Shown here piece after piece: positions 6,400 to 16,895 of a DNA stretch of 34,455 bases. Numbering within the stretch: position 1 is the stretch's first letter; each line of letters opens with the position of its first letter. The notes under the pieces are model-generated. The model had not been told where the DNA came from, made no database searches, and worked only from the letters and a program-made list of their open reading frames with translations. Made by a program: the position numbers and the translations under genes. Source of the DNA: Sporichthyaceae bacterium (GTDB lineage Bacteria > Actinomycetota > Actinomycetes > Sporichthyales > Sporichthyaceae); NCBI GenBank assembly GCA_036493475.1, contig DASXPS010000158.1, positions 1-34,455 on the forward strand, read 5' to 3'.

Positions 6400-7239
6400 C
6401 TACCGCACATCCTTCACCCAACCGCCGGCGTTATAGCCGTCGAGGGTGAAGCAGACGTGGCAGAACTGCAGCCCGAACTGGGTGATCTGGATGCTGCGAT
6501 ACACCGTCACGGTGCGCTTGGCCCGCGCCATCGCGGCCGCGGCCACCGGCTGCGCCTCCACGAACGAGTACCGGCGCGGATCCTCCACCTGCTCGGCGGA
6601 GAAGAAGATCATGCCCAACCGGTCCAGGTTCGCCAGGTACTCCTGGTAGCGCTCCGGGTAGGTGCAGCCGGCCATCTCGGCGACCAGATTGATACCGCTG
6701 GCGATCAGCTCCGACCCCACGCCCAACGGCGTCTTGGTGCGCACGTCGATGGCCGGTTGCGGACCGGCCAGCGCCATGAATCGCAGGATGCGGGCCTCAT
6801 CGGGCATCAGCTCGCGCAGGATGCGGGTGAACGCCGGGTGCTCGTTGTGCGGCCGGGCGTGTGGGTCACCCACCTGTCGCAGCAACTCGTCGCCCTGCTC
6901 CCGCAGCTCCGCCAGTGACTGGCCGTCATGGTGGACCCGCACCACCAGGGGATGTTGCGGGTGCTGCGGCTGCAGGCCCAGCCCGCGCACCACACGGAAG
7001 CGCACCGTCTCGATCTGCCGGTCCACGATCTCGGTGATCGGCTCTCCCGCAACGACGTCGCGGACCAATCCGGTGGACGCGGCGACGGCGCCCTTCAGCA
7101 CCCCGGTGGATACCCGCCAGGAGGTCCCCACCGCGAACCGGACCAGGCCGGTCGCGCCGGAGTAACTCCGCAGGTCCAGCCGCACCGGCAGGCGGTGGCC
7201 GTTGGACGACGGCACCGGCGCCGGGACCGGCTCGCTCAT
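6400..7239 (-). CDS. Abi-alpha family protein (DUF4393)
   Basis: The product has 279 residues from ATG 7239. The GTG six bases earlier (7245) would leave no room for the GGAGGG site, which is correctly spaced for 7239. The first 110 residues are variable with no helix long enough to be a clear membrane anchor. The family core follows: EHPAFTRILRELMPDEARIL near 145-165, then an Asp-rich turn, and YLANLDRLGMI near 220-230, closing with SIQITQFGLQFCHVC. The HPAF..I...L.PDEA.IL and Y..NL.RLG signatures match Abi-alpha/DUF4393 proteins, a family named for abortive infection, whose mechanism is not established. It starts inside or just after the DUF445 gene stop (7242-7244), so the two are translationally coupled. 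The link to phage defence here is inference from the family name. Confidence 0.85.
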   Translation of the reverse strand: MSEPVPAPVPSSNGHRLPVRLDLRSYSGATGLVRFAVGTSWRVSTGVLKGAVAASTGLVRDVVAGEPITEIVDRQIETVRFRVVRGLGLQPQHPQHPLVVRVHHDGQSLAELREQGDELLRQVGDPHARPHNEHPAFTRILRELMPDEARILRFMALAGPQPAIDVRTKTPLGVGSELIASGINLVAEMAGCTYPERYQEYLANLDRLGMIFFSAEQVEDPRRYSFVEAQPVAAAAMARAKRTVTVYRSIQITQFGLQFCHVCFTLDGYNAGGWVKDVR

Positions 7240-7241
7240 GC

Positions 7242-8597
7242 TCACCCTCCGAAGATCACCAGGTGGATGACACCGACGAACAGCCCCAGGAAACCACCGT
7301 GCGCGTAGAGCAGCCAGGCGTCCTGCTCAACGGCCGAGTACAGCATCTCCATGAATTCACTCGGCGGCAGCTCCCGCAGCTTCTCCGTACAGAACGCATC
7401 GATCTTCTCCGCCTGCCGCTGGGTGAACGCGGCGTCCTCCAGCAGCCGCGGCGCGACGTCCATGGCCGCGCCGGTGGTGCCGAGCCGGATCGCCTCGAAC
7501 TCCCGGCCGCCCACCGCCGCGCGCACCAGCGTGCGGGTCGGGCCGACGATCTCATCGACCTCGGAGAGCATCACCGCCTGGATGAGCACCCGGGTCTTGT
7601 CCGAGCGCGGCCCGGAGACCAGCTCGGTGATGATGTTCGGCATCGTGATGACCTCGTAGGCCAACGACCAGCCGAAGCTCGCGGCCGCCTCGTGCTGCCG
7701 CCGAGCGAACTTGGCCTGCTTCCACAGGTAGCGGTAGCGCGGGGCAGGGTCGGCCGGTTCGAACACCATCTTGATCGCGACGATGTTCACGATGATGCCG
7801 ATCAACGAGGCGCCGGTGATCACGATCAACCAGTGCGGGACTGCTGACAGCCCGGGCACGGAACCGGTTGCCTGCAGGAACAACGCCAGCAGCAGGCCCA
7901 GCGGCAGCCCCAACCAGAAGCCGATCGCGGTCATGAACCGCAGCTCCTTGGCGCCCAGGTTGTAGATGATGTCGCGCAGAATCTTCGGGTCCTCACGCAG
8001 CCGGCCGACCACCATCAGCTTGATGTCGATGAGGTCGTCGATGTTCTCCTCGATGGTGTCCATCGCGTGGTTGGCGATCGTCGGCAGCCGGTTGAGCACC
8101 CGTTGGTAGACGACCTCACGCAGTTGCTGCGGTAGTTGGTCCCACAGCTCGGGATGCTCGCGCTCCATGATCTCGTCGACCATGCCGCGCACCTGTGGGC
8201 GGGCCACCACCGCGAGTTGGTCGGCGATCAACTTCGGGTCCAGCTCGGTGAGGAAGTCCCCGATGCTGCCCAGCCGGGACAACCCCTTGTCCACGCAGAT
8301 GCTGGCCATGCGTTCGGCGCGGGCCGGGATGAAGCCCTGGAAGCCGAGGATGCCGCCGGGGGCAAAGATCGGCAGCACCTGCAACCGGCGCGGCAGGAAC
8401 GGGAAGAGCGTCTTGACGCCCGGGCAGTGGAAGCCGCGGAAATGGATCGGCGCGAACAGCATGATCACGCCGGTCCAGTTGGTGACCAGCCCGGCGATTG
8501 CGCTGAAGATCGGGATGCTGACCAGGTCGATGACGAATGTCGACTGACCGGTCATCGATTCGAAGTCGACCAGCCCGCCGGCGGCGACGACGCTCAT
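7242..8597 (-). CDS. DUF445 family membrane protein
   Basis: The product has 451 residues from ATG 8597; GGAGG eight bases upstream decides this start over the in-frame ATG at 8612, which would overlap that site. DUF445 features are plain: an N-terminal membrane segment with IFSAIAGLVTNWTGVIMLF, then PFLPRRLQVLPIF and GFQGFIPARAERMA, matching the family pattern W-T-N-W-h and G-W/F-Q-G-h-h-P-x-x-A. Two central helices, FWLGLPLGLLLALFLQ and HWLIVITGASLIGIIVNIVA, and a C-terminal hydrophobic segment GGFLGLFVGVIHLVIFGG complete the topology, with a large soluble part between. The family is uncharacterised (YheB-like). It overlaps the Abi-alpha start region and lies 80 bases after the signal peptidase gene. 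Confidence 0.88.
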   Translation of the reverse strand: MSVVAAGGLVDFESMTGQSTFVIDLVSIPIFSAIAGLVTNWTGVIMLFAPIHFRGFHCPGVKTLFPFLPRRLQVLPIFAPGGILGFQGFIPARAERMASICVDKGLSRLGSIGDFLTELDPKLIADQLAVVARPQVRGMVDEIMEREHPELWDQLPQQLREVVYQRVLNRLPTIANHAMDTIEENIDDLIDIKLMVVGRLREDPKILRDIIYNLGAKELRFMTAIGFWLGLPLGLLLALFLQATGSVPGLSAVPHWLIVITGASLIGIIVNIVAIKMVFEPADPAPRYRYLWKQAKFARRQHEAAASFGWSLAYEVITMPNIITELVSGPRSDKTRVLIQAVMLSEVDEIVGPTRTLVRAAVGGREFEAIRLGTTGAAMDVAPRLLEDAAFTQRQAEKIDAFCTEKLRELPPSEFMEMLYSAVEQDAWLLYAHGGFLGLFVGVIHLVIFGG

Positions 8598-8677: not shown

Positions 8678-9298
8678 TCAGTCCGCCGGCCACAACCGCA
8701 GGTGCCCGCCGACCCGACCGACGTCGCCGAGCGGCCAGACGCGCCACCCGACCACGCCCTGCACCAGGTCCGCCGGCGCCCAGCCCAGGCTGAGCGAATC
8801 GCGGGACGCCGCGGCGTTGTCGCCGAGCAGGAACAGCATTCCGGCGGGCACCACGACCGGCACCGCGGCGTCGGTGGCCTTCCCCTCGCCCGTGCAGCAG
8901 GCCGTGCCCTCAGCCCAGTCGCGCACCGCCCACGCGGGGTTTTCCACCTGCCGCCACGACCCGTCGCCGCCCGGCTGCACCTCGACGTGAACGTGCCCGG
9001 CACTGTCCCCGCGGATCTGCACCCGATCGCCGGGCAGGGCGATGATTCGCTTGACCACCCGCGGTCCACCTGCCTCGAAGCGTCCCACCACCAGCGCGAA
9101 ACGGTGCGGTAGACCACCCCCGGTGAAAGGGCGCAGCAGCACCCGGTCGCGGTCGTTGAGGGTCGGCTGCATGCTCTCGCCCTGCACCCGCACGGCCAGC
9201 ACCGCAACGGCCGCGGCCAGCAGGGCGAGCACGAGCAGTACGACCCCGCCCGCCACCAGCGCGACCCGGCGGGACCTCACCTGCGGCAATCGGCGCAC
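8678..9298 (-). CDS. Signal peptidase I (S26 family)
   Basis: The product has 206 residues from GTG 9298, chosen because it places a short basic N-terminus (RRLPQVRSRR) right before one membrane helix (VALVAGGVVLLVLALLAAAV). The frame is open further upstream without a convincing start. Catalytic Ser42 is in VQGESMQPTL and Lys83 in RVVKRIIALPGDRV, the Ser-Lys dyad of type I signal peptidases. Box E appears as LFLLGDNAAASRDSLSLG. An inserted CC-containing loop (AEGTACCTGEGKATD) between these boxes is unusual and might be cell-surface exposed. It cleaves signal peptides of exported proteins on the outer face of the membrane. It heads the DUF445/Abi-alpha operon and is divergent from the operon of small exported DUF6230 proteins. 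Confidence 0.93.
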   Translation of the reverse strand: MRRLPQVRSRRVALVAGGVVLLVLALLAAAVAVLAVRVQGESMQPTLNDRDRVLLRPFTGGGLPHRFALVVGRFEAGGPRVVKRIIALPGDRVQIRGDSAGHVHVEVQPGGDGSWRQVENPAWAVRDWAEGTACCTGEGKATDAAVPVVVPAGMLFLLGDNAAASRDSLSLGWAPADLVQGVVGWRVWPLGDVGRVGGHLRLWPAD

Positions 9299-9389: not shown

Positions 9390-10049
9390 GTGAGCGCGTC
9401 GGCGTCGGACCTGCCCCGCGGCGGCACCCGATGGCGCCGCACCGCGGCCGTGTTCGGCCCATCGCTGGTCGCCGCCGTGGCGCTCATTGTCGCGACGCTG
9501 CGCGGCCCGATCCCGATCAACCTGACCATCTCCGGCCAGGACATCAAACTGTCCTCCAACGGCGGGCCGGTGGAGTTGCCCCGCGGGCTGACGCTCTACC
9601 CGTCCACGGTGCAGATGAAGAACGGCGGCGAGACGCGCGGGGTGATGATCGCCGGGCTGCCCGAGGCGGTGCTGACCAAGGGCCTGTGCATCTCGCTGGT
9701 GCTGAGCTTCCCCGCGCTGGGCAGCTACACGATCCGGCTGCACACCTCCGGGCGGACGACGGCCCATCAGATGACCTTGGACGCCGCGGGCATCAACGTG
9801 GGTCTGGCCACGCTGGCCGCGGGCGCCGACGGCAAGGACCCGATCGCACTGGGCCATTCCGCCCTGGACTCCTTGGGGGAAACGTCCGACGCGCACGGTC
9901 GTTTCGGCATCTCGGCGCCCGGCGCGGGGTCGCTGCAGGCATTGCAGGCAAACGCGCAGGGCGCGATCATTGCCGGCACCGTGGACCTGAACGGGCTCAA
10001 GGTGAAGGTCAACAAGGGCAGCGGCGTTGCCAACGGGGAGTGCTACTGA
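9390..10049 (+). CDS. DUF6230 family exported protein, copy 1
   Basis: The product has 219 residues from GTG 9390, with GGAGGGAA in front. The N-terminus is basic (GTRWRRTAAVFGPS) and runs into a single hydrophobic helix (LVAAVALIVATL); a clear signal-peptidase site is not visible, so it may stay anchored. The remaining 180 residues are beta-rich with hydroxyl residues, typical of DUF6230 (GTRWRR start, GLC motif). Cys near residue 101 in TKGLCISLV and a Cys at the C-terminus (GVANGECY) may form a disulfide; the same pair is kept in the two paralogues downstream. Function unknown. Its TGA shares a base with the ATG of the next gene. Confidence 0.78.
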   Translation: MSASASDLPRGGTRWRRTAAVFGPSLVAAVALIVATLRGPIPINLTISGQDIKLSSNGGPVELPRGLTLYPSTVQMKNGGETRGVMIAGLPEAVLTKGLCISLVLSFPALGSYTIRLHTSGRTTAHQMTLDAAGINVGLATLAAGADGKDPIALGHSALDSLGETSDAHGRFGISAPGAGSLQALQANAQGAIIAGTVDLNGLKVKVNKGSGVANGECY

Positions 10050-10483
10050 TGCACCTGACCCAGCTGCGCAACTCACCGCCCGTGCTGCGGTTCCGCCGCT
10101 TCCGACGCAGCCGACCGTTCTGGGGTGGGTTGCTGGTGGTGATCGCCGGTCTGGAGTTGGGCGCGCTGCCGATCGGCCCCACCGATGCGCTGATCAAGGC
10201 CGGCAAGAGCGCGGGGGCCGGGTTGGCCTGCGCCGGATTGTTGTTGTTGATGGGCGTGGTGATCCTGATCGTGCCCTCGCAACGGATCGTGGCCGGGCTG
10301 ATCGCGGTGGGCGCCTCGCTGGCCTCGTTCGTGCTGTCCAACCTCGGCGGGTTCGTCATCGGCATGCTGTTGGGCGTGCTCGGCGGATCGTTGGCGGTGG
10401 GGTGGGTGCCGGACCTCACGGCGTTTCCGAGGAGCCGCGGGACCTGGTTCCGCCGCGCCCACGGGGGGTGGGCCGATGGGTGA
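10049..10483 (+). CDS. DUF6114 family membrane protein, copy 1
   Basis: The product has 144 residues. After a basic lead comes the family signature RRSRPFWGGLLVV, then about four membrane helices (LVVIAGLELGALP, GAGLACAGLLLLMGVVILIV, IVAGLIAVGASLASFVLSNL, GGFVIGMLLGVLGGSLAVGW). PSQR in the second loop and SNLGG between helices 3 and 4 recur in copy 2. DUF6114 is an uncharacterised integral membrane family that travels beside DUF6230 in actinomycetes. It starts on the stop codon of DUF6230 copy 1 (TGATG), and its end overlaps the next gene by 8 bases, so translation of all three is coupled. A likely role is to hold or export the DUF6230 partner, which is inference. Confidence 0.8.
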   Translation: MHLTQLRNSPPVLRFRRFRRSRPFWGGLLVVIAGLELGALPIGPTDALIKAGKSAGAGLACAGLLLLMGVVILIVPSQRIVAGLIAVGASLASFVLSNLGGFVIGMLLGVLGGSLAVGWVPDLTAFPRSRGTWFRRAHGGWADG

Positions 10484-11153
10484 GCACCGGCGCAGTGCCC
10501 GGCTGGTTGCGACGCTGCACGCGAAGCACCGGGCGATGCTCACCGCGGCCGAGCAGGGCCCTGAATACGGGACCCGATGGGCCCGCGGTGCGGCCGTATT
10601 CGCCCCGGCCGCCGTCGCCTCGGCCGCGGTTGGCGTCGCGATGGCGCAGGGCGCGCTGGCCGCCGGGTTCAACGTGACCAACCAGAAGTTCGGCCTGCAC
10701 ATTGACGAGCTCGACGGCAGCGGTCTGGGCGCGGTGCTGGTCGTCGCGCAGACCCAGAGCGGCAGCAAGCCCGTCGTGCTGCACGCCGCGCTGTCCTCGG
10801 CGAAGCTGTCCGGGCTGTGCATCCTGGTGCACCAGTCGCTGCTCGGGGTTAACTACACGATCAGCATCGGCTCCGTCGGGACGCAGCAGTCCTCGGGCAC
10901 CAACCTGCTGTTCGACATCACCGACCTGAGCTCAACCTCGTCGACGCTGACCGCCGTGCTCGGGGTCTCCGCGGACACTGTGAGGTCGGGCGATCAGTCA
11001 TTGGGCGGCGTGCCGGGCGCGTTCGGGCTGACCAACGGCGAGGTGACCTTGCACAACGTGTACGCGTCGGCGTATCAGACCCAGGTCGTGGGCGGCCTGA
11101 CGCTGCCGAACCTCGGCATCCACGTGCACCCGGGCGATGTCTCGGGGTGCTGA
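10476..11153 (+). CDS. DUF6230 family exported protein, copy 2
   Basis: The product has 225 residues. It has a longer cytosolic lead (about 32 residues with many Arg/His) than copy 1, then the family's YGTRWARGAAVFAPAAV segment and a hydrophobic helix ending AQGALAAGF, where AxA could be cleaved by signal peptidase. The beta-rich body has LSGLCILVHQSLLGVNY near residue 110 and a single Cys as the last residue (GDVSGC). These correspond to the Cys pair of copies 1 and 3. There are many Ser/Thr residues, as in surface proteins. The ATG overlaps the DUF6114 copy 1 stop by 8 bases; the next gene begins one base after its stop. Confidence 0.8.
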   Translation: MGEHRRSARLVATLHAKHRAMLTAAEQGPEYGTRWARGAAVFAPAAVASAAVGVAMAQGALAAGFNVTNQKFGLHIDELDGSGLGAVLVVAQTQSGSKPVVLHAALSSAKLSGLCILVHQSLLGVNYTISIGSVGTQQSSGTNLLFDITDLSSTSSTLTAVLGVSADTVRSGDQSLGGVPGAFGLTNGEVTLHNVYASAYQTQVVGGLTLPNLGIHVHPGDVSGC

Positions 11154-11154
11154 G

Positions 11155-11553
11155 ATGAGGAGCAGCGCTGAGGCGGTGACGCGCGACCGGCTCGACGCCG
11201 CGCGGCGGACGCTCCGCGCGTTCCGGCGCACCCGGCCTTTTTGGGGTGGGCTGTGGTTGCTGGTGGGGGGTTGGTTGGTGCTGCGGCTGTCCATGGTGCC
11301 CGCGCACATCGCAGTTGGGGCCGGGCTGAGCGGGATCGGCGGCTGGCTCACCGGCGGCGGCATGATCCTGTGCGGATTGGCCGCCTGGGGCGCGCCCAGC
11401 CAGCGGTACGTGGTCGGCGCCGTCGGGGTGCTGCTCGCGGTGACCTCGCTGATCGTGTCCAACCTCGGCGGCCTGTTCCTCGGCATGCTCGCCGGCATCA
11501 TCGGCGGCGCCATGACGCTGGCGTGGGGACCGAAGAAGCCGGCCCGCCCGTGA
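11155..11553 (+). CDS. DUF6114 family membrane protein, copy 2
   Basis: The product has 132 residues from ATG 11155, one base after the previous stop. It is clearly paralogous to copy 1: RRTRPFWGGLWLLVGG, then a membrane helix, a glycine-rich second helix (LSGIGGWLTGGGMILCGLAA), PSQRYVVGAVGVLLAV, and SNLGGLFLGMLAGIIGGAMTLAW. The conserved WGGL, PSQR and SNLGG positions support a shared structure with four helices. The gene ends at TGA 11551-11553, overlapping a possible GTG start of the next gene; a strong hairpin follows 24 bases after the stop. Function unknown. Confidence 0.82.
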   Translation: MRSSAEAVTRDRLDAARRTLRAFRRTRPFWGGLWLLVGGWLVLRLSMVPAHIAVGAGLSGIGGWLTGGGMILCGLAAWGAPSQRYVVGAVGVLLAVTSLIVSNLGGLFLGMLAGIIGGAMTLAWGPKKPARP

Positions 11554-12218
11554 CCCCGCCCGCCGCCACCCTCCACCCCCCTTGCGTCCGAAGAAGTGTG
11601 GGTGCGCGGACACTCTTCTTCGGACGCAAGGGGATGGGGGTCGCGTTGGCGGGGCTGCTCGCCGTGGGCAGCGCGCTCGGCCCGTCCCGCCTGGCGGGCG
11701 CGGTGACCCGGCCGGCGGCCGCGCCCGCGCCCGGCTTTCTCGCCGCGCCCACGCCGGTGCACGTGACCGCGCCGACGCTGCGCATCACGGCGCTGTCCGC
11801 GATCCAGTCGCGGCAGCCGGTGGCCCTGGCCGGCGGCGGGAAGTCGCCGAGCAACACGCTGCTGTTGGAGTTCGCCCGCATCGACCTGGACAAGTTGAGC
11901 ATCAGTCAGCGCAGCAGCGGCGCGGCGTTGGCGATCAGCAACGCCGGATCGGGGGCCGGTGCCGCGGTGCTCGGCGGGCAGGACGTGTTGCTGTGGGGCG
12001 TGGTGCACCGCCTCGACGTGTGCTTGCCCCCGGCGCCGTGCACCGACCTGCACTCGATCCTTGGCCTGCTCGGGCAGTTGGTGAAGTCCGGCGCGCTGCC
12101 GCACGTCATCAACGCGAAGGACCTGGACGTCGACATCTACGCCCTGCGGGCCGTCGGCACCAGCGGCGGGATGTCGTTGCTGCTGCCCAGTGTCAGCGTC
12201 ACCGTGGAGCCAGGATGA
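11550..12218 (+). CDS. Unrecognised secreted protein within the DUF6230/DUF6114 operon
   Basis: The frame is open from GTG 11550 (GTGA overlap with the previous stop), giving 222 residues, but ATG 11634 (194 residues) or a TTG at 11646 preceded by GGGGG are as likely. The first 28 codons consist largely of the 19-base inverted repeat at 11578-11633 and look non-coding. From 11634 on a good signal peptide is seen (GVALAGLLAVGSALGPSRLA) with candidate cleavage after an Ala-Gly or Ala-Ala site. The mature part is beta-rich, with two Cys in a loop (LDVCLPPAPCTDLHSILG). I do not recognise the family. It ends by overlapping the ATG of DUF6230 copy 3 (ATGA at 12215-12218), so it belongs to the same operon. 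Confidence 0.65.
   Translation: MTPPAATLHPPCVRRSVGARTLFFGRKGMGVALAGLLAVGSALGPSRLAGAVTRPAAAPAPGFLAAPTPVHVTAPTLRITALSAIQSRQPVALAGGGKSPSNTLLLEFARIDLDKLSISQRSSGAALAISNAGSGAGAAVLGGQDVLLWGVVHRLDVCLPPAPCTDLHSILGLLGQLVKSGALPHVINAKDLDVDIYALRAVGTSGGMSLLLPSVSVTVEPG
11578..11633. repeat. 19-base perfect inverted repeat (strong hairpin) at a gene start
   Basis: The left arm at 11578-11596 begins CCCCTTGCGTCC and ends GAAGAAG; the right arm at 11615-11633 begins CTTCTTCGGACG and ends CAAGGGG. The arms are exact complements over 19 bases around an 18-base loop, and within the loop GTG and CAC can add pairs. It follows the DUF6114 copy 2 stop and ends directly at ATG 11634. No T-run follows, but actinobacterial terminators often lack one. 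It may be an intra-operon terminator/attenuator, an RNA-processing site, or a small inserted palindromic element. Confidence 0.85.
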
Positions 12219-12853
12219 TGCCCGCGGGCAACGAACCTGACTTAGAGTCAGGGACTCGCTGGGGCGTGTTCGGGGCGGTGCTGGCGCCGGTCCTGGTGGC
12301 GGTCGGGGTGCTGGGCGTGCTGCTGGCGAACGGTGCACTGGCGCTGTCCTTCGTCGCGCAGTCCGGCTCGATGGACCTGGCCACCTCCGGACTGACCGGC
12401 ACTGGTTTCGGCGTGGTGGTGGCCGACGTTCCCACCACCGGCGGACATACCCCGACAGCCCGCATCGGCGTCGGCGCGGGGCGCATCGACGGGCTCTGCC
12501 TGGCCGAGCACACGGACGTTCTCGGACAGCCGCTGACGCTGCTGCTCACCGGTGGCGACGCCGACCCGGCCAGCTACGAGATCGCGGTGGATGGCCTGCT
12601 GCTGGACCTGTCCTCGGTGTCCGGCGTGTTGAACGCGGGCGGGCAGGTCCAGTTGAACAAGAGCGCAGCGGACGTGGTGGTGAACGCGCCCGGGCTGGCT
12701 CTCGACGGGGCGGCGAACCGGTTCGGCCTGCAGGCATCGACCGTGCAACTGAGGAACGTGCGGGCCACCGTGCGGGACATCGTGATCCCGCACCTGCTCG
12801 ACGTCCCCGGCTTCCACATCCAGGTTCTCGCCGGCAGCCACGGCTGCCCCTAG
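12215..12853 (+). CDS. DUF6230 family exported protein, copy 3
   Basis: The product has 212 residues from ATG 12215; an immediately following ATG (12218) is equally compatible with GGAG at 12206-12209. It has a short acidic lead, then SGTRWGVFGAVLAPVLVAV and one hydrophobic helix (LGVLLANGALALSFVA) with an AxA-like exit. The beta-rich body keeps the family features: GTGFGVVVADVP, IDGLCLAEHTDVLG with the conserved Cys, and a Cys near the C-terminus (GSHGCP). It is the last gene of the six-gene run. Its TAG (12851-12853) interlocks with the stop codon of the convergent membrane-protein gene. Function unknown. Confidence 0.78.
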   Translation: MMPAGNEPDLESGTRWGVFGAVLAPVLVAVGVLGVLLANGALALSFVAQSGSMDLATSGLTGTGFGVVVADVPTTGGHTPTARIGVGAGRIDGLCLAEHTDVLGQPLTLLLTGGDADPASYEIAVDGLLLDLSSVSGVLNAGGQVQLNKSAADVVVNAPGLALDGAANRFGLQASTVQLRNVRATVRDIVIPHLLDVPGFHIQVLAGSHGCP

Positions 12854-14220: not shown

Positions 14221-14748
14221 ATGCGCGCCCGCAGTCCGCAGTTCGCCGCGCTCGCAGTGACCGTCGTGGTCGTCGGCGGCGGCGCGACGTTGGGGTGGCA
14301 CCACTGGCACGGCTCGGACGACAACCAGTCCGCGCCGAGCAGCACGCAGCCCACCCCGGCGGATGCACATCAGGTCGCCCAGGCGCTGGCGAAGATGCCG
14401 AGCAAGCCACAGGATCTGATCGCCACCGACGTGCGCTCGGCGATCGGCACCCAGGCGAAGCAGGCCCTGCCGGCCGGTGCCACGGTCACCGCCAACGAGG
14501 CCACCTGGCACCCCGACGGCCTGGGTGGCGGCACGATCACCGCGACGGTCACCGCCCCCGGCGCGCCGACCACCGTCTACACGGTGATGATGATCAAGGA
14601 GCCGACCGGCTGGAAGGTGGTCGGCACGGTGCCGATGACACCGTCCGCGCCCAAGGAGCCGGTGGCCCCGAAGCCACCCGCCGCGCCCAACCCGTTGCCG
14701 CCTGCACCGACCACCCCGGCTCAACCCCCGAAGGCGGACACGCAATGA
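14221..14748 (+). CDS. Membrane-anchored exported protein of unknown function
   Basis: The product has 175 residues; GGGGAGGAAG before ATG 14221 is an excellent ribosome site. An N-terminal hydrophobic helix (FAALAVTVVVVGGGATLGW) is followed by HHWHGSDD, with no lipobox, so it is likely an uncleaved anchor or a Sec signal. A Ser/Thr/Pro linker (about 38-55) precedes a globular part (about 56-140) of helix plus strands, ending in VYTVMMIKEPTGWKVVGTVP. This last strand pair, with W-K-V, resembles the end of small cystatin/NTF2-like extracellular domains, but I cannot name the family. The C-terminal 35 residues are Pro/Ala-rich (KEPVAPKPPAAPNPLPPAP). The stop overlaps the start of the large hydrolase-like gene, so the two proteins may act together outside the cell. 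Confidence 0.75.
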   Translation: MRARSPQFAALAVTVVVVGGGATLGWHHWHGSDDNQSAPSSTQPTPADAHQVAQALAKMPSKPQDLIATDVRSAIGTQAKQALPAGATVTANEATWHPDGLGGGTITATVTAPGAPTTVYTVMMIKEPTGWKVVGTVPMTPSAPKEPVAPKPPAAPNPLPPAPTTPAQPPKADTQ

Positions 14749-16895
14749 GGCGCCACCTGCGGCTGGGCCTGGGGGCATTGGCGGTGCTGAGCCTCACCCT
14801 GCCCACGGTCACGTTGGCCCGGGCCGCGAGCAGCGGCGCCCCGGAGGCGGCGGCGTGCGGGCAGATCGAACCCGCCCCGATTCTCGAGCGCGCCGACGAC
14901 GGCTCGAAGATCAAGTCCCGGCCGGACCGGCGCGGCGTGTACGTGCCGATCATCATGGTCCCGGACTGGACCGGGCGGTCCAAGCACGACGCCACCCGCA
15001 CCGGGGACTTCTCCGTCCCCATCGACATGAGCACCAGCGGCACCCCGCCGCCCGCGCGCCGCGCCTCGCTGATCGGGCAGTTGCAGCAGATCCCCGGCGC
15101 GGCGGTCTACACGTTCGACTACCGGGGCAGCGCGGGCAAATGGGTGGACGACCCGGCCATCGGCCCCGCGCTGGGTGACGCCATCGACTGCGTGACCGCA
15201 GCGCTCGGGCAGAAGGCGATCCTGATCACCCATGGGCTGGGCGGCGCGGCCGCGCGGTACGCCGTGGCCGGTCAGGTCGCCGGGCACGACCGCGGCAACG
15301 AGGTCACCACGGTGATCGGTTTCGGCAGCGCGCAGAACGGTTCGCAGTTGGCGGACCTGACCAATACCGGGGTGGGCACCACTGCCTCCGAGCCGCGCAT
15401 CCTGTCCCGGCTGCTGCTCGGGGCATGCGCCGGGTTGGCCCCAACCAAGTTCGATCCCTACTCCCCCTGCGGGTCGATCCCGCCGGAGGCGGCCGCGATC
15501 GGCAGCAGCGGCGCGGCGGCCAGCTACGCGGCCGGGTCGGCCGCGCTTACCGGGTTGCTGCCCTACCCGCCCAACGTCGCGCTGGACGCGTTCGCCGGTG
15601 ACGTACAGGTGAAGGCGCCGAACCTGGGTTGGTTCAACCTGCGCCCGTTCCGCACCGACCAGATCTCCCTGGGCGACCTGGCCACCAGCACCGCCGCAGT
15701 GACCCTCGCCGCCCGTTCCCAGCTGCGGTCCACCTGCTCGTTCACCCTCAGCGCCTTCGGCACCGGCAACCAGAGTGTGGGGATGCGCCTGGACGACGCC
15801 ACCGCACCCCAACTCGGCCCGGTCTGGGCCTCCACGGTGCGCCAGTGCTACGCCGCCGACCTGCCGCGGATCAGTGAGTTCGCGGACAGTGTGACCGCCA
15901 TCATCTCCAAGGAGATCCGTAACCGGCAGCCGCTGGACACCTCCGAGCTGGAGTCGTTGCCGGTGCCCGCGCTCTGTGGGCATCCCGCGGGAAACCTCGT
16001 CGGCGGCTACCTACCGAACGTCCCGCCGGACCAGGGGCAGGTGGCATTGGCGTCCACGCTGGACCCCAGCCGGTTCAAGGACTACACGGTGTTCGGGGAC
16101 ATCACCGGCGACGGCGTGCCGGACACCGTGGTGGTGCTCAAGTGCAGCGACGCCAACGGCGAGGGCGCGGATGCGGTGGCCGCGTACGACAGCCAGGCGA
16201 GCCTGCTCGGCTACGTCAGTCTGGACACGGTGACCGGCCGGCCGCGCAACGAGATCTACCGGGTCAGCGTCGACAAAGAAGTCGGCAAGATCAACTGGCG
16301 CACCGATCGGGACACCGACTCGGGGTGCTGCCCCACGCTGGACGTCGCGGCCACCTTCACCTACGACACCAGTACCGGCGGGCTGAAGGCGGACAAGCTG
16401 CAGACGTTCAACGAGACCGAGATCGCCGCGGCACTGTTCGACGCCGCGCGCACTGGCAAGGTGGACAAGAAGGTCGCCGCGACGGCCCCGACGGAGATCC
16501 TCAACGCGATGATCGCGGCCAACCGGGACACCGGCGCCTTCCGCTCGCTGACCTGCTACGGGCCGTCCCCCGATGACACGTCGTGGCCGATTGTGGCCAG
16601 GGCGGATTTCGGCGAGAACTGGCCGCCCAACGATGGCCTTCGGCACGGCGACCGGTTCTGCCTGATCAAGTTGGGCGCCACCGGGGCCGGGCCCGCGCCC
16701 GCCCCGGATGGGCCGGGCGTCGTTCCGCCGGATGAACCGGAGCGGTACGCCCTGCTCGGCCTGGAGCACACCGGCTACCGCCAGTGGGAGGCCGTGGAGT
16801 TCCGACTGCCCGGCGACCAGCAGCCGACCAATCCGGACGGTGGCGGCGGGATCTTCGGCACGCCGCGACCGGGTGGCGGCCCGCTGTTCCCCTGA
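14745..16895 (+). CDS. Large secreted alpha/beta-hydrolase-like protein lacking the nucleophile serine
   Basis: The product has 716 residues. A clear signal peptide (LGLGALAVLSLTLPTVTLAR, AxA near 26-28) targets it outside. Residues about 60-190 follow the lipase/PGAP1-like layout: VPIIMVPDWTG as the strand before the oxyanion loop, VYTFDYRGSAGKW, and AILITHGLGGAAARYAVAG at the nucleophile elbow. In active relatives that elbow is G-H-S-h-G-G; here it is T-H-G-L-G-G with Gly164 in place of Ser. A downstream segment, FGDITGDGVPDTVVVL (about residue 452), resembles a calcium-binding FG-GAP/dockerin-like loop. Ten or more Cys suggest disulfides. It overlaps the anchored protein gene (ATGA). It may be a non-catalytic binding protein. 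A frameshift is unlikely because the frame is open throughout. Confidence 0.72.
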   Translation: MRRHLRLGLGALAVLSLTLPTVTLARAASSGAPEAAACGQIEPAPILERADDGSKIKSRPDRRGVYVPIIMVPDWTGRSKHDATRTGDFSVPIDMSTSGTPPPARRASLIGQLQQIPGAAVYTFDYRGSAGKWVDDPAIGPALGDAIDCVTAALGQKAILITHGLGGAAARYAVAGQVAGHDRGNEVTTVIGFGSAQNGSQLADLTNTGVGTTASEPRILSRLLLGACAGLAPTKFDPYSPCGSIPPEAAAIGSSGAAASYAAGSAALTGLLPYPPNVALDAFAGDVQVKAPNLGWFNLRPFRTDQISLGDLATSTAAVTLAARSQLRSTCSFTLSAFGTGNQSVGMRLDDATAPQLGPVWASTVRQCYAADLPRISEFADSVTAIISKEIRNRQPLDTSELESLPVPALCGHPAGNLVGGYLPNVPPDQGQVALASTLDPSRFKDYTVFGDITGDGVPDTVVVLKCSDANGEGADAVAAYDSQASLLGYVSLDTVTGRPRNEIYRVSVDKEVGKINWRTDRDTDSGCCPTLDVAATFTYDTSTGGLKADKLQTFNETEIAAALFDAARTGKVDKKVAATAPTEILNAMIAANRDTGAFRSLTCYGPSPDDTSWPIVARADFGENWPPNDGLRHGDRFCLIKLGATGAGPAPAPDGPGVVPPDEPERYALLGLEHTGYRQWEAVEFRLPGDQQPTNPDGGGGIFGTPRPGGGPLFP

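What the first reader, a model, noticed from the sequence alone, without database searches (positions are those of the whole stretch)
9390..12853. Six-gene coupled DUF6230/DUF6114 operon with an embedded unknown secreted protein
Three exported DUF6230 proteins alternate with two four-helix DUF6114 membrane proteins, each overlapping or abutting the next by a few bases. All three DUF6230 copies keep a Cys after a GLC motif and another at the C-terminus, while sequences elsewhere diverge strongly. The two DUF6114 copies keep WGGL, PSQR and SNLGG. Together this suggests a dedicated export or surface-assembly module: small disulfide-bonded proteins plus membrane partners, with paralogues specialised for different places or partners. 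Both families lack an assigned function. The operon is divergent from a signal peptidase I gene that could process its products.
Basis: partly seen in the sequence, partly recalled or inferred. Interest (0 to 1): 0.8.

Follow-up and report, generated by a model that had tools for sequence, protein, structure and literature searches.

The report
Conserved six-gene actinobacterial envelope operon
Many soil actinobacteria share the same six adjacent genes, in the same order and with their own signal peptidase, which make a set of small disulfide-pinned exported proteins and their membrane partners; this looks like an undescribed cell-envelope machine of unknown task, possibly one that handles lipids.

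Summary
Window 9390-12853 holds DUF6230(A1)-DUF6114(B1)-DUF6230(A2)-DUF6114(B2)-X-DUF6230(A3), overlapping or abutting, divergent from a signal peptidase I. A scan with B2 alone recovered the identical A-B-A-B-X-A order in 49 loci from at least seven orders of Actinomycetes; 45 have a signal peptidase I within 3.5 kb, and these peptidases cluster apart from housekeeping ones. A1, A2, A3 and B1, B2 are ancient separate lineages: one inherited unit, not recent tandem duplication. X is a conserved family, not an orphan. In A proteins the most conserved residues include a two-cysteine pair (kept or lost together) and a GTRWxR motif before the membrane segment; no histidine is conserved, which argues against the name 'cholesterol esterase' that SCO5420, by synteny a DUF6230 protein, carries. 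AlphaFold2 gives confident all-beta models of A2 and X without significant PDB match. Best reading: a dedicated export/assembly module that puts disulfide-pinned beta-proteins on or outside the membrane, matured by its own peptidase; a lipid-handling task is only inferred.

The parts
9390..10049 (+). A1: DUF6230 paralogue 1 (GTG start); no AxA site after its membrane segment, so probably a membrane anchor
   Evidence: PF19741 51.4 bits; A1 lineage; GPIPINL where A2/A3 have GALA
10049..10483 (+). B1: DUF6114 four-helix membrane protein, partner position of A1
   Evidence: PF19609 104.8 bits; B1 lineage
10476..11153 (+). A2: DUF6230 paralogue 2; GALA|AGF cleavage-like site; all-beta ectodomain
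   Evidence: PF19741 79.4 bits; AlphaFold2 pLDDT 91.7, pTM 0.71
11155..11553 (+). B2: DUF6114 membrane protein, partner position of A2
   Evidence: PF19609 103.7 bits; B2 lineage
11550..12218 (+). X: secreted protein of a conserved family, gene 5 of this operon in all lineages; start GTG 11550 (4-nt overlap, as in relatives) or ATG 11634
   Evidence: X family joins Nocardiaceae, Streptomyces, Nocardioides and Pseudonocardiaceae copies; AlphaFold2 pLDDT 87.0, pTM 0.78
11578..11633 (.). palindromic interspersed repeat between B2 and X (23-nt arms, 96% complementary)
12215..12853 (+). A3: DUF6230 paralogue 3; GALA|LSF cleavage-like site
   Evidence: PF19741 68.9 bits; A3 lineage
8678..9298 (-). 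dedicated signal peptidase I (likely GTG start at 9298), divergent from the operon
   Evidence: TIGR02227 87.9 bits; cluster of operon peptidases apart from housekeeping ones
7242..8597 (-). DUF445-like membrane protein, frequent neighbour
   Evidence: PF04286 25.3 bits, below cut-off 33.8; within 4.5 kb in 13 of 49 complete operons
6400..7239 (-). Abi_alpha (PF14337) protein paired with the DUF445-like gene
   Evidence: PF14337 E 1.3e-35; same pair next to the operon in several lineages

Best explanation
A dedicated actinobacterial envelope export/assembly module, inherited as one unit. Three specialised DUF6230 proteins enter the membrane through one N-terminal segment preceded by a conserved GTRWxR motif and expose a long-stranded beta ectodomain pinned by one disulfide. 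Two DUF6114 four-helix proteins are the membrane partners of A1 and A2, and X is a further exported beta protein. The neighbouring signal peptidase I releases the members with an AxA site (A2, A3, X); in the window and most Nocardiaceae copies A1 lacks the site and would stay as anchor. The assembled proteins probably bind or move hydrophobic (lipid) material at the cell surface. Shown: gene content, order, co-inheritance, paralogue specialisation, cysteine pattern, predicted folds. Inferred: A-B contacts, peptidase specificity, and the lipid task (about 1 in 3). The confidence given is for the export/assembly module, not for the lipid task.
For: 49 complete A-B-A-B-X-A operons in at least seven orders, found with a B2-only query; 45 have signal peptidase I within 3.5 kb. 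A1/A2/A3 form separate lineages (A1 needs 3 label changes and A2 4, shuffled mean 44.3 for A1; A3 set of 53 rows at 100). B1/B2 mirror this, and the B of the Streptomyces SCO5421-type pair joins B1 just as its A joins A1, so A and B seem to duplicate as pairs. Operon peptidases form one cluster at 99 apart from housekeeping ones. Cysteines: A2, A3 and SCO5420-type all keep the pair; A1 has both (42) or neither (9), never one. R34, R37, C115 and C225 are among the most conserved residues. AxA-like sites in 48/51 A2, 43/51 A3, 46/51 X. Three genomes have DUF6114 fused to an X'-like tail. Lipid hints: SCO5420, by synteny DUF6230, rises 37-fold on Tween (PMC7494193); one A-B pair sits beside a squalene/undecaprenyl synthase fusion gene; X's best structural match is LptA (Z 3.0).
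Against: No complex was predicted; the LptA match is far below a trustworthy Z; the locus has no ATPase or channel that would power transport. Four Nocardiaceae loci lack a neighbouring signal peptidase. The genomes also have housekeeping peptidases that could do the cleavage. AxA scoring was by simple pattern, not by a trained signal-peptide predictor; A1 of most other lineages does have the pattern.
Confidence: 0.6

Rival explanations
1. DUF6230 proteins are secreted cholesterol (fatty-acyl ester) esterases, and the operon is an expanded set of such enzymes for using lipid esters.
For: SCO5420 is called cholesterol esterase and rises 37-fold on Tween 40 (PMC7494193). By synteny with pyk2 (SCO5423) it is the DUF6230 gene of the A-B-X' locus. 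Proteins named cholesterol esterase are abundant in the S. scabiei secretome (PMC5158115). Xiang et al. 2007, known here only from reference lists, describe a 'novel family' of actinomycete cholesterol esterases; that this family is DUF6230 is inference.
Against: No histidine is conserved in any A group, SCO5420-type included; conserved polar positions of SCO5420-type proteins are mostly not kept in A1-A3. No enzyme fold was found.
Confidence: 0.13
2. The A proteins polymerise into surface fibres after cleavage by their own peptidase, working like the TapA-SipW-TasA system of Bacillus.
For: A dedicated signal peptidase with several small exported beta proteins is the same logic; several paralogues per operon; the segment after the membrane helix is modelled with lower confidence (blocks 79 and 73), as a free donor strand might be.
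Against: No hit to camelysin/TasA in Pfam; the peptidase matches TIGR02227 (bacterial type), not the SipW type; TasA was not among the listed fold matches, which does not exclude it.
Confidence: 0.13
3. The module is a lipid bridge proper: A and X are beta-taco proteins that pass lipids from DUF6114 outwards, as LptC/LptA do.
For: X's top VIA match is E. coli LptA, Z 3.0, 3.5 A over 71 residues; A = membrane-anchored beta domain, X = soluble one, resembling LptC and LptA; lipid-linked expression.
Against: Z 3.0 is within noise; A2's own listed matches do not include Lpt proteins; no LptB2FG-like ABC transporter in the locus.
Confidence: 0.15
4. The locus is part of an anti-phage or abortive-infection island, because it sits beside an Abi_alpha gene.
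For: Abi_alpha with DUF445-like next to the operon in the window, G001, Skermania, Antrihabitans, several Nocardioides and, co-directional with A-B, Pseudonocardia L110; PADLOC candidate PDC-S47; Abi_alpha is rare in the class sample (6 of 60 genomes).
Against: The pair also stands alone in genomes without the operon and is absent beside the Streptomyces operons; no operon protein matches PADLOC.
Confidence: 0.06

Closest known systems
DUF6230-DUF6114(-X') locus of Streptomyces, SCO5420-SCO5422 type
   Same: Same two Pfam families in the same A-then-B order, usually followed by a secreted third protein; its A joins the A1 side and its B the B1 side of the trees
   Different: One pair only, no dedicated signal peptidase seen beside it; third protein X' is 450-500 aa with a linker, or fused to DUF6114 in three genomes; X' is not detectably X
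TapA-SipW-TasA operon of Bacillus subtilis (own knowledge)
   Same: Small cluster coding for exported beta-rich proteins plus a dedicated signal peptidase
   Different: No camelysin domain, bacterial-type instead of SipW-type peptidase, extra multi-helix DUF6114 partners, three ancient paralogues
Lpt bridge (LptC/LptA) of Gram-negative bacteria (own knowledge)
   Same: Membrane-anchored and soluble all-beta domains; weak structural match of X to LptA
   Different: No ABC transporter in the locus, no sequence match, fold similarity within noise

Membership tests
DUF6230 (PF19741) | profile score over Pfam's cut-off | tested here: met
   51.4, 79.4 and 68.9 bits against 27.5
DUF6114 (PF19609) | profile score over Pfam's cut-off | tested here: met
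   104.8 and 103.7 bits against 27.9
Signal peptidase I (TIGR02227) | profile over cut-off and catalytic Ser/Lys motifs | tested here: met
   87.9 bits against 47; GESMQP and VKRIIALPGD in the translation
DUF6230 family, claimed for X | profile or profile-profile match | tested here: inconclusive
   no Pfam hit; A-X profile score 32 against 8-18 for most controls but 28 for reversed-reversed
Cholesterol esterase of the SCO5420 type | belongs to the SCO5420-type sequence set | tested here: not met
   SCO5420-type copies lie on the A1 side of the tree; A2 and A3 lie elsewhere
Serine hydrolase (esterase) | conserved Ser-His-Asp/Glu triad | tested here: not met
   no conserved His in A1, A2, A3 or SCO5420-type alignments
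Cholesterol esterase of the SCO5420 type | hydrolysis of cholesteryl esters | not testable with these tools
   needs an enzyme assay
TapA-SipW-TasA type fibre system | camelysin/TasA domain in the exported proteins | tested here: not met
   no such hit in Pfam scans of the single proteins and of 69 relatives (one search shows the first 25 of 27 families)
TapA-SipW-TasA type fibre system | SipW (archaeal/ER-type) peptidase | tested here: not met
   best match TIGR02227; no SipW-type model among the hits
TapA-SipW-TasA type fibre system | dedicated peptidase gene adjacent and co-inherited | tested here: met
   45 of 49 operons, own cluster in the tree
Lpt beta-taco bridge | beta-taco fold | tested here: inconclusive
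   X to LptA Z 3.0 only; no significant Foldseek match for A2 or X
Lpt beta-taco bridge | ABC transporter LptB2FG in the system | tested here: inconclusive
   none seen among the genes around the operon in the window, L044 and L045 by reading the translations; the rest of the genome was not searched

The most novel reading that the evidence does not exclude
A categorically new envelope machine of Actinomycetes: a heteromeric assembly of disulfide-pinned beta proteins of a fold not yet solved, recruited by a GTRWxR sorting motif to DUF6114 membrane partners and matured by a private signal peptidase, moving or displaying lipids at the cell surface.
Probability: 0.25. Interest if true: 0.85.

Novelty: new variant of a known kind. 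Interest (0 to 1): 0.62.

Why it matters
Two Pfam families of unknown function, an unnamed third family (X) and a separate signal peptidase lineage turn out to be one inherited unit in orders that include antibiotic producers and mycolic-acid bacteria. That makes the function directly testable by one operon deletion in a tractable Streptomyces, and it questions the name 'cholesterol esterase' for DUF6230 proteins, in which no catalytic triad is conserved.

Tried and rejected
Orphan X: rejected, X is a family found in all operon lineages. Recent tandem duplication: rejected, paralogues are ancient. Genome-wide use of the GTRWxR signal: a degenerate DNA pattern was too generic to tell (hits 36, 58, 14 and 19 against 14, 36, 20 and 9 for the reversed control). 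Peptidase CC motif as a mark of the operon cluster: rejected, housekeeping peptidases have it too. The first peptidase tree lacked outgroups through a faulty pattern and one script crashed; repeated. PDB sequence search for A and X: nothing significant. Foldseek for A2 and X: best E 0.05 and 0.35, no significant match; VIA second look: only weak rows, TasA not listed. Rfam: no match. Promoter scan: nothing; the one terminator-like site lies inside B1 and is at chance level. Literature on DUF6230/DUF6114: one incidental mention (PMC12835213). Sven_0933, a nitrogen-starvation-induced 'putative cholesterol esterase' without an S. coelicolor homologue (PMC3087709), may belong to the operon, but its sequence could not be checked.
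Full report
What is there. Window 9390-12853 holds six co-directional genes: A1 9390-10049, B1 10049-10483, A2 10476-11153, B2 11155-11553, X 11550 (or 11634)-12218, A3 12215-12853. Three are DUF6230, two DUF6114, X has no Pfam or NCBIfam match, and the genome has no other DUF6230 or DUF6114. Junctions overlap by 1-8 nt or leave 1 nt, except that X may start either at GTG 11550 (4-nt overlap, the usual arrangement in relatives) or at ATG 11634 after an 80-nt gap. Upstream and divergent lies a signal peptidase I, then a DUF445-like gene and an Abi_alpha gene.

Is it more than chance. A scan of 84,980 species genomes with an alignment of B2 only fetched 69 loci. Genes were called in them with a simple codon-position method and labelled with profiles built here. 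Smaragdicoccus has two complete copies in tandem. Some Actinokineospora keep a reduced A-B-X-A; the two A copies tested there group with A2-type and A3-type proteins. In a sample of 297 genomes of the class, 65 have DUF6230, but only the window, G033 and G047 show three clustered copies, so the full operon is uncommon and patchy.

One inherited unit. In a tree of 170 DUF6230 proteins A1 needs 3 label changes and A2 4, against a mean of 44 for shuffled A1 labels, and A3 sits in a fully supported set. DUF6114 shows the same kind of separation for B1 and B2 (3 and 5 changes against about 27 shuffled). Branches are long and several joins carry warnings, so the exact order of duplications is not claimed. 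The Streptomyces SCO5420-type A falls on the A1 side and its B on the B1 side, which suggests that A and B duplicate and travel as pairs. X copies from the four main lineages are one family by profile comparison, directly or through intermediates.

The peptidase. 45 of 49 operons have a signal peptidase I within 3.5 kb; the four exceptions are Nocardiaceae. It lies divergently, or between B1 and A2 on the other strand in Antrihabitans and Skermania, or co-directionally upstream; the Streptomyces loci whose sequences were read add a TetR gene. Operon peptidases group apart from housekeeping peptidases with support 99; the one intruder is a very long branch. After the membrane segment an AxA-like pattern is present in 48 of 51 A2, 43 of 51 A3 and 46 of 51 X. 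In the window and most Nocardiaceae-type A1 proteins it is replaced by a Pro-containing sequence, while most other A1 proteins keep it (43 of 51 in all). For the window this suggests a fixed A1 and released A2, A3 and X. It is inference from a simple pattern.

The proteins. The most conserved DUF6230 positions are the two cysteines (C115, C225 of A2), some glycines, and the GTRWxR motif before the membrane helix. A1 proteins have both ectodomain cysteines (42) or none (9), never one; A2, A3 and SCO5420-type always keep both positions. This is the pattern of a disulfide partner pair. No histidine is conserved. AlphaFold2 models A2 at mean pLDDT 91.7, pTM 0.71, with a membrane helix 35-57 and eight strands, most of them long, and X at 87.0 and 0.78. 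The order of strands, short helix and last long strands looks alike in both, and profile comparison of A with X scores 32 against 8-18 for most controls, though the reversed-reversed control scores 28, so a common origin is possible but not shown. Neither model has a significant PDB match. In the VIA second look X's best row is E. coli LptA, Z 3.0, which is within noise.

What it may do. Expression and naming point to lipids. SCO5420 is reported as 'cholesterol esterase' and rises 37-fold on Tween, and pyk2 is SCO5423 in the same paper (PMC7494193). The Streptomyces loci read here show pyruvate kinase - X' - DUF6114 - DUF6230, so SCO5420 is DUF6230 by synteny; the S. coelicolor sequence itself was not compared. 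'Cholesterol esterases' are prominent in the S. scabiei secretome (PMC5158115), but that those entries are DUF6230 was not checked. One Streptomyces-type A-B pair overlaps a squalene-synthase/undecaprenyl-synthase fusion gene. Against an enzyme stands the lack of any conserved triad. I therefore favour an export/assembly module whose exported beta proteins bind or carry hydrophobic matter, and rate the module claim well above the lipid claim.

Beyond the coordinates. The DUF445-like/Abi_alpha pair lies next to the operon in the window, its sister species, Skermania, Antrihabitans, several Nocardioides and, co-directional with A-B, Pseudonocardia L110. Abi_alpha occurs in 6 of 60 sampled genomes, three of them with the operon or its remnant; the pair also exists alone elsewhere. 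It is a frequent but separable neighbour. In the sister species G001 the operon is a remnant: X and A3 fragments, a broken peptidase, DUF445-like and Abi_alpha intact.

Limits. Gene calls outside the window are heuristic; the scan was seeded with B2 and cannot count operons that lack a recognisable B2; no complexes could be predicted; the paper library holds only open-licence papers, so absence of literature is not proof of novelty. Because the component families are known and the A-B pair is known from Streptomyces genomes, I grade the operon as a new variant of a known kind, with a categorically new machine as the less likely reading.

Noticed in passing
window 11578-11633: Interspersed palindrome GTCCGAAGAA-N20-TTCTTCGGAC: 16 copies in the own genome, 9 in G002 and 1 in G003 of another genus of the family, 0 in the sister species and the other genomes searched, 0 in the reversed control. 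Overall length is fixed at 40 nt, and the middle is itself largely self-complementary and differs between genera. As RNA the stretch folds at -76.5 kcal/mol, z -5.2. It may supply N-terminal codons of X or insulate X from B2.
   Followed up: partly
window 6400-8597: Abi_alpha (PF14337, PADLOC candidate PDC-S47) and a DUF445-like gene form a conserved pair, also found alone in genomes without the operon.
   Followed up: partly
L046 5416-8004 (G001): Sister species carries a decayed operon: X and A3 fragments and a signal peptidase remnant with an in-frame stop, beside intact DUF445-like and Abi_alpha genes.
   Followed up: partly
L058 and L063 (Smaragdicoccus): Two complete six-gene operons in tandem, and a third operon on another contig of the same genome.
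   Followed up: no
L049 7784-10652: A divergent A-B pair directly followed by a gene that fuses squalene/phytoene synthase with undecaprenyl diphosphate synthase.
   Followed up: no
L052 7021-8802, L053 8736-10202, L054 12494-13699: DUF6114 fused to a long linker and a C-terminal domain resembling the third protein of the SCO5420 locus.
   Followed up: partly
window 14745-16895: Large secreted protein with an alpha/beta-hydrolase-like look (MVPDWTG, HGLGGAA) but no Pfam match.
   Followed up: no
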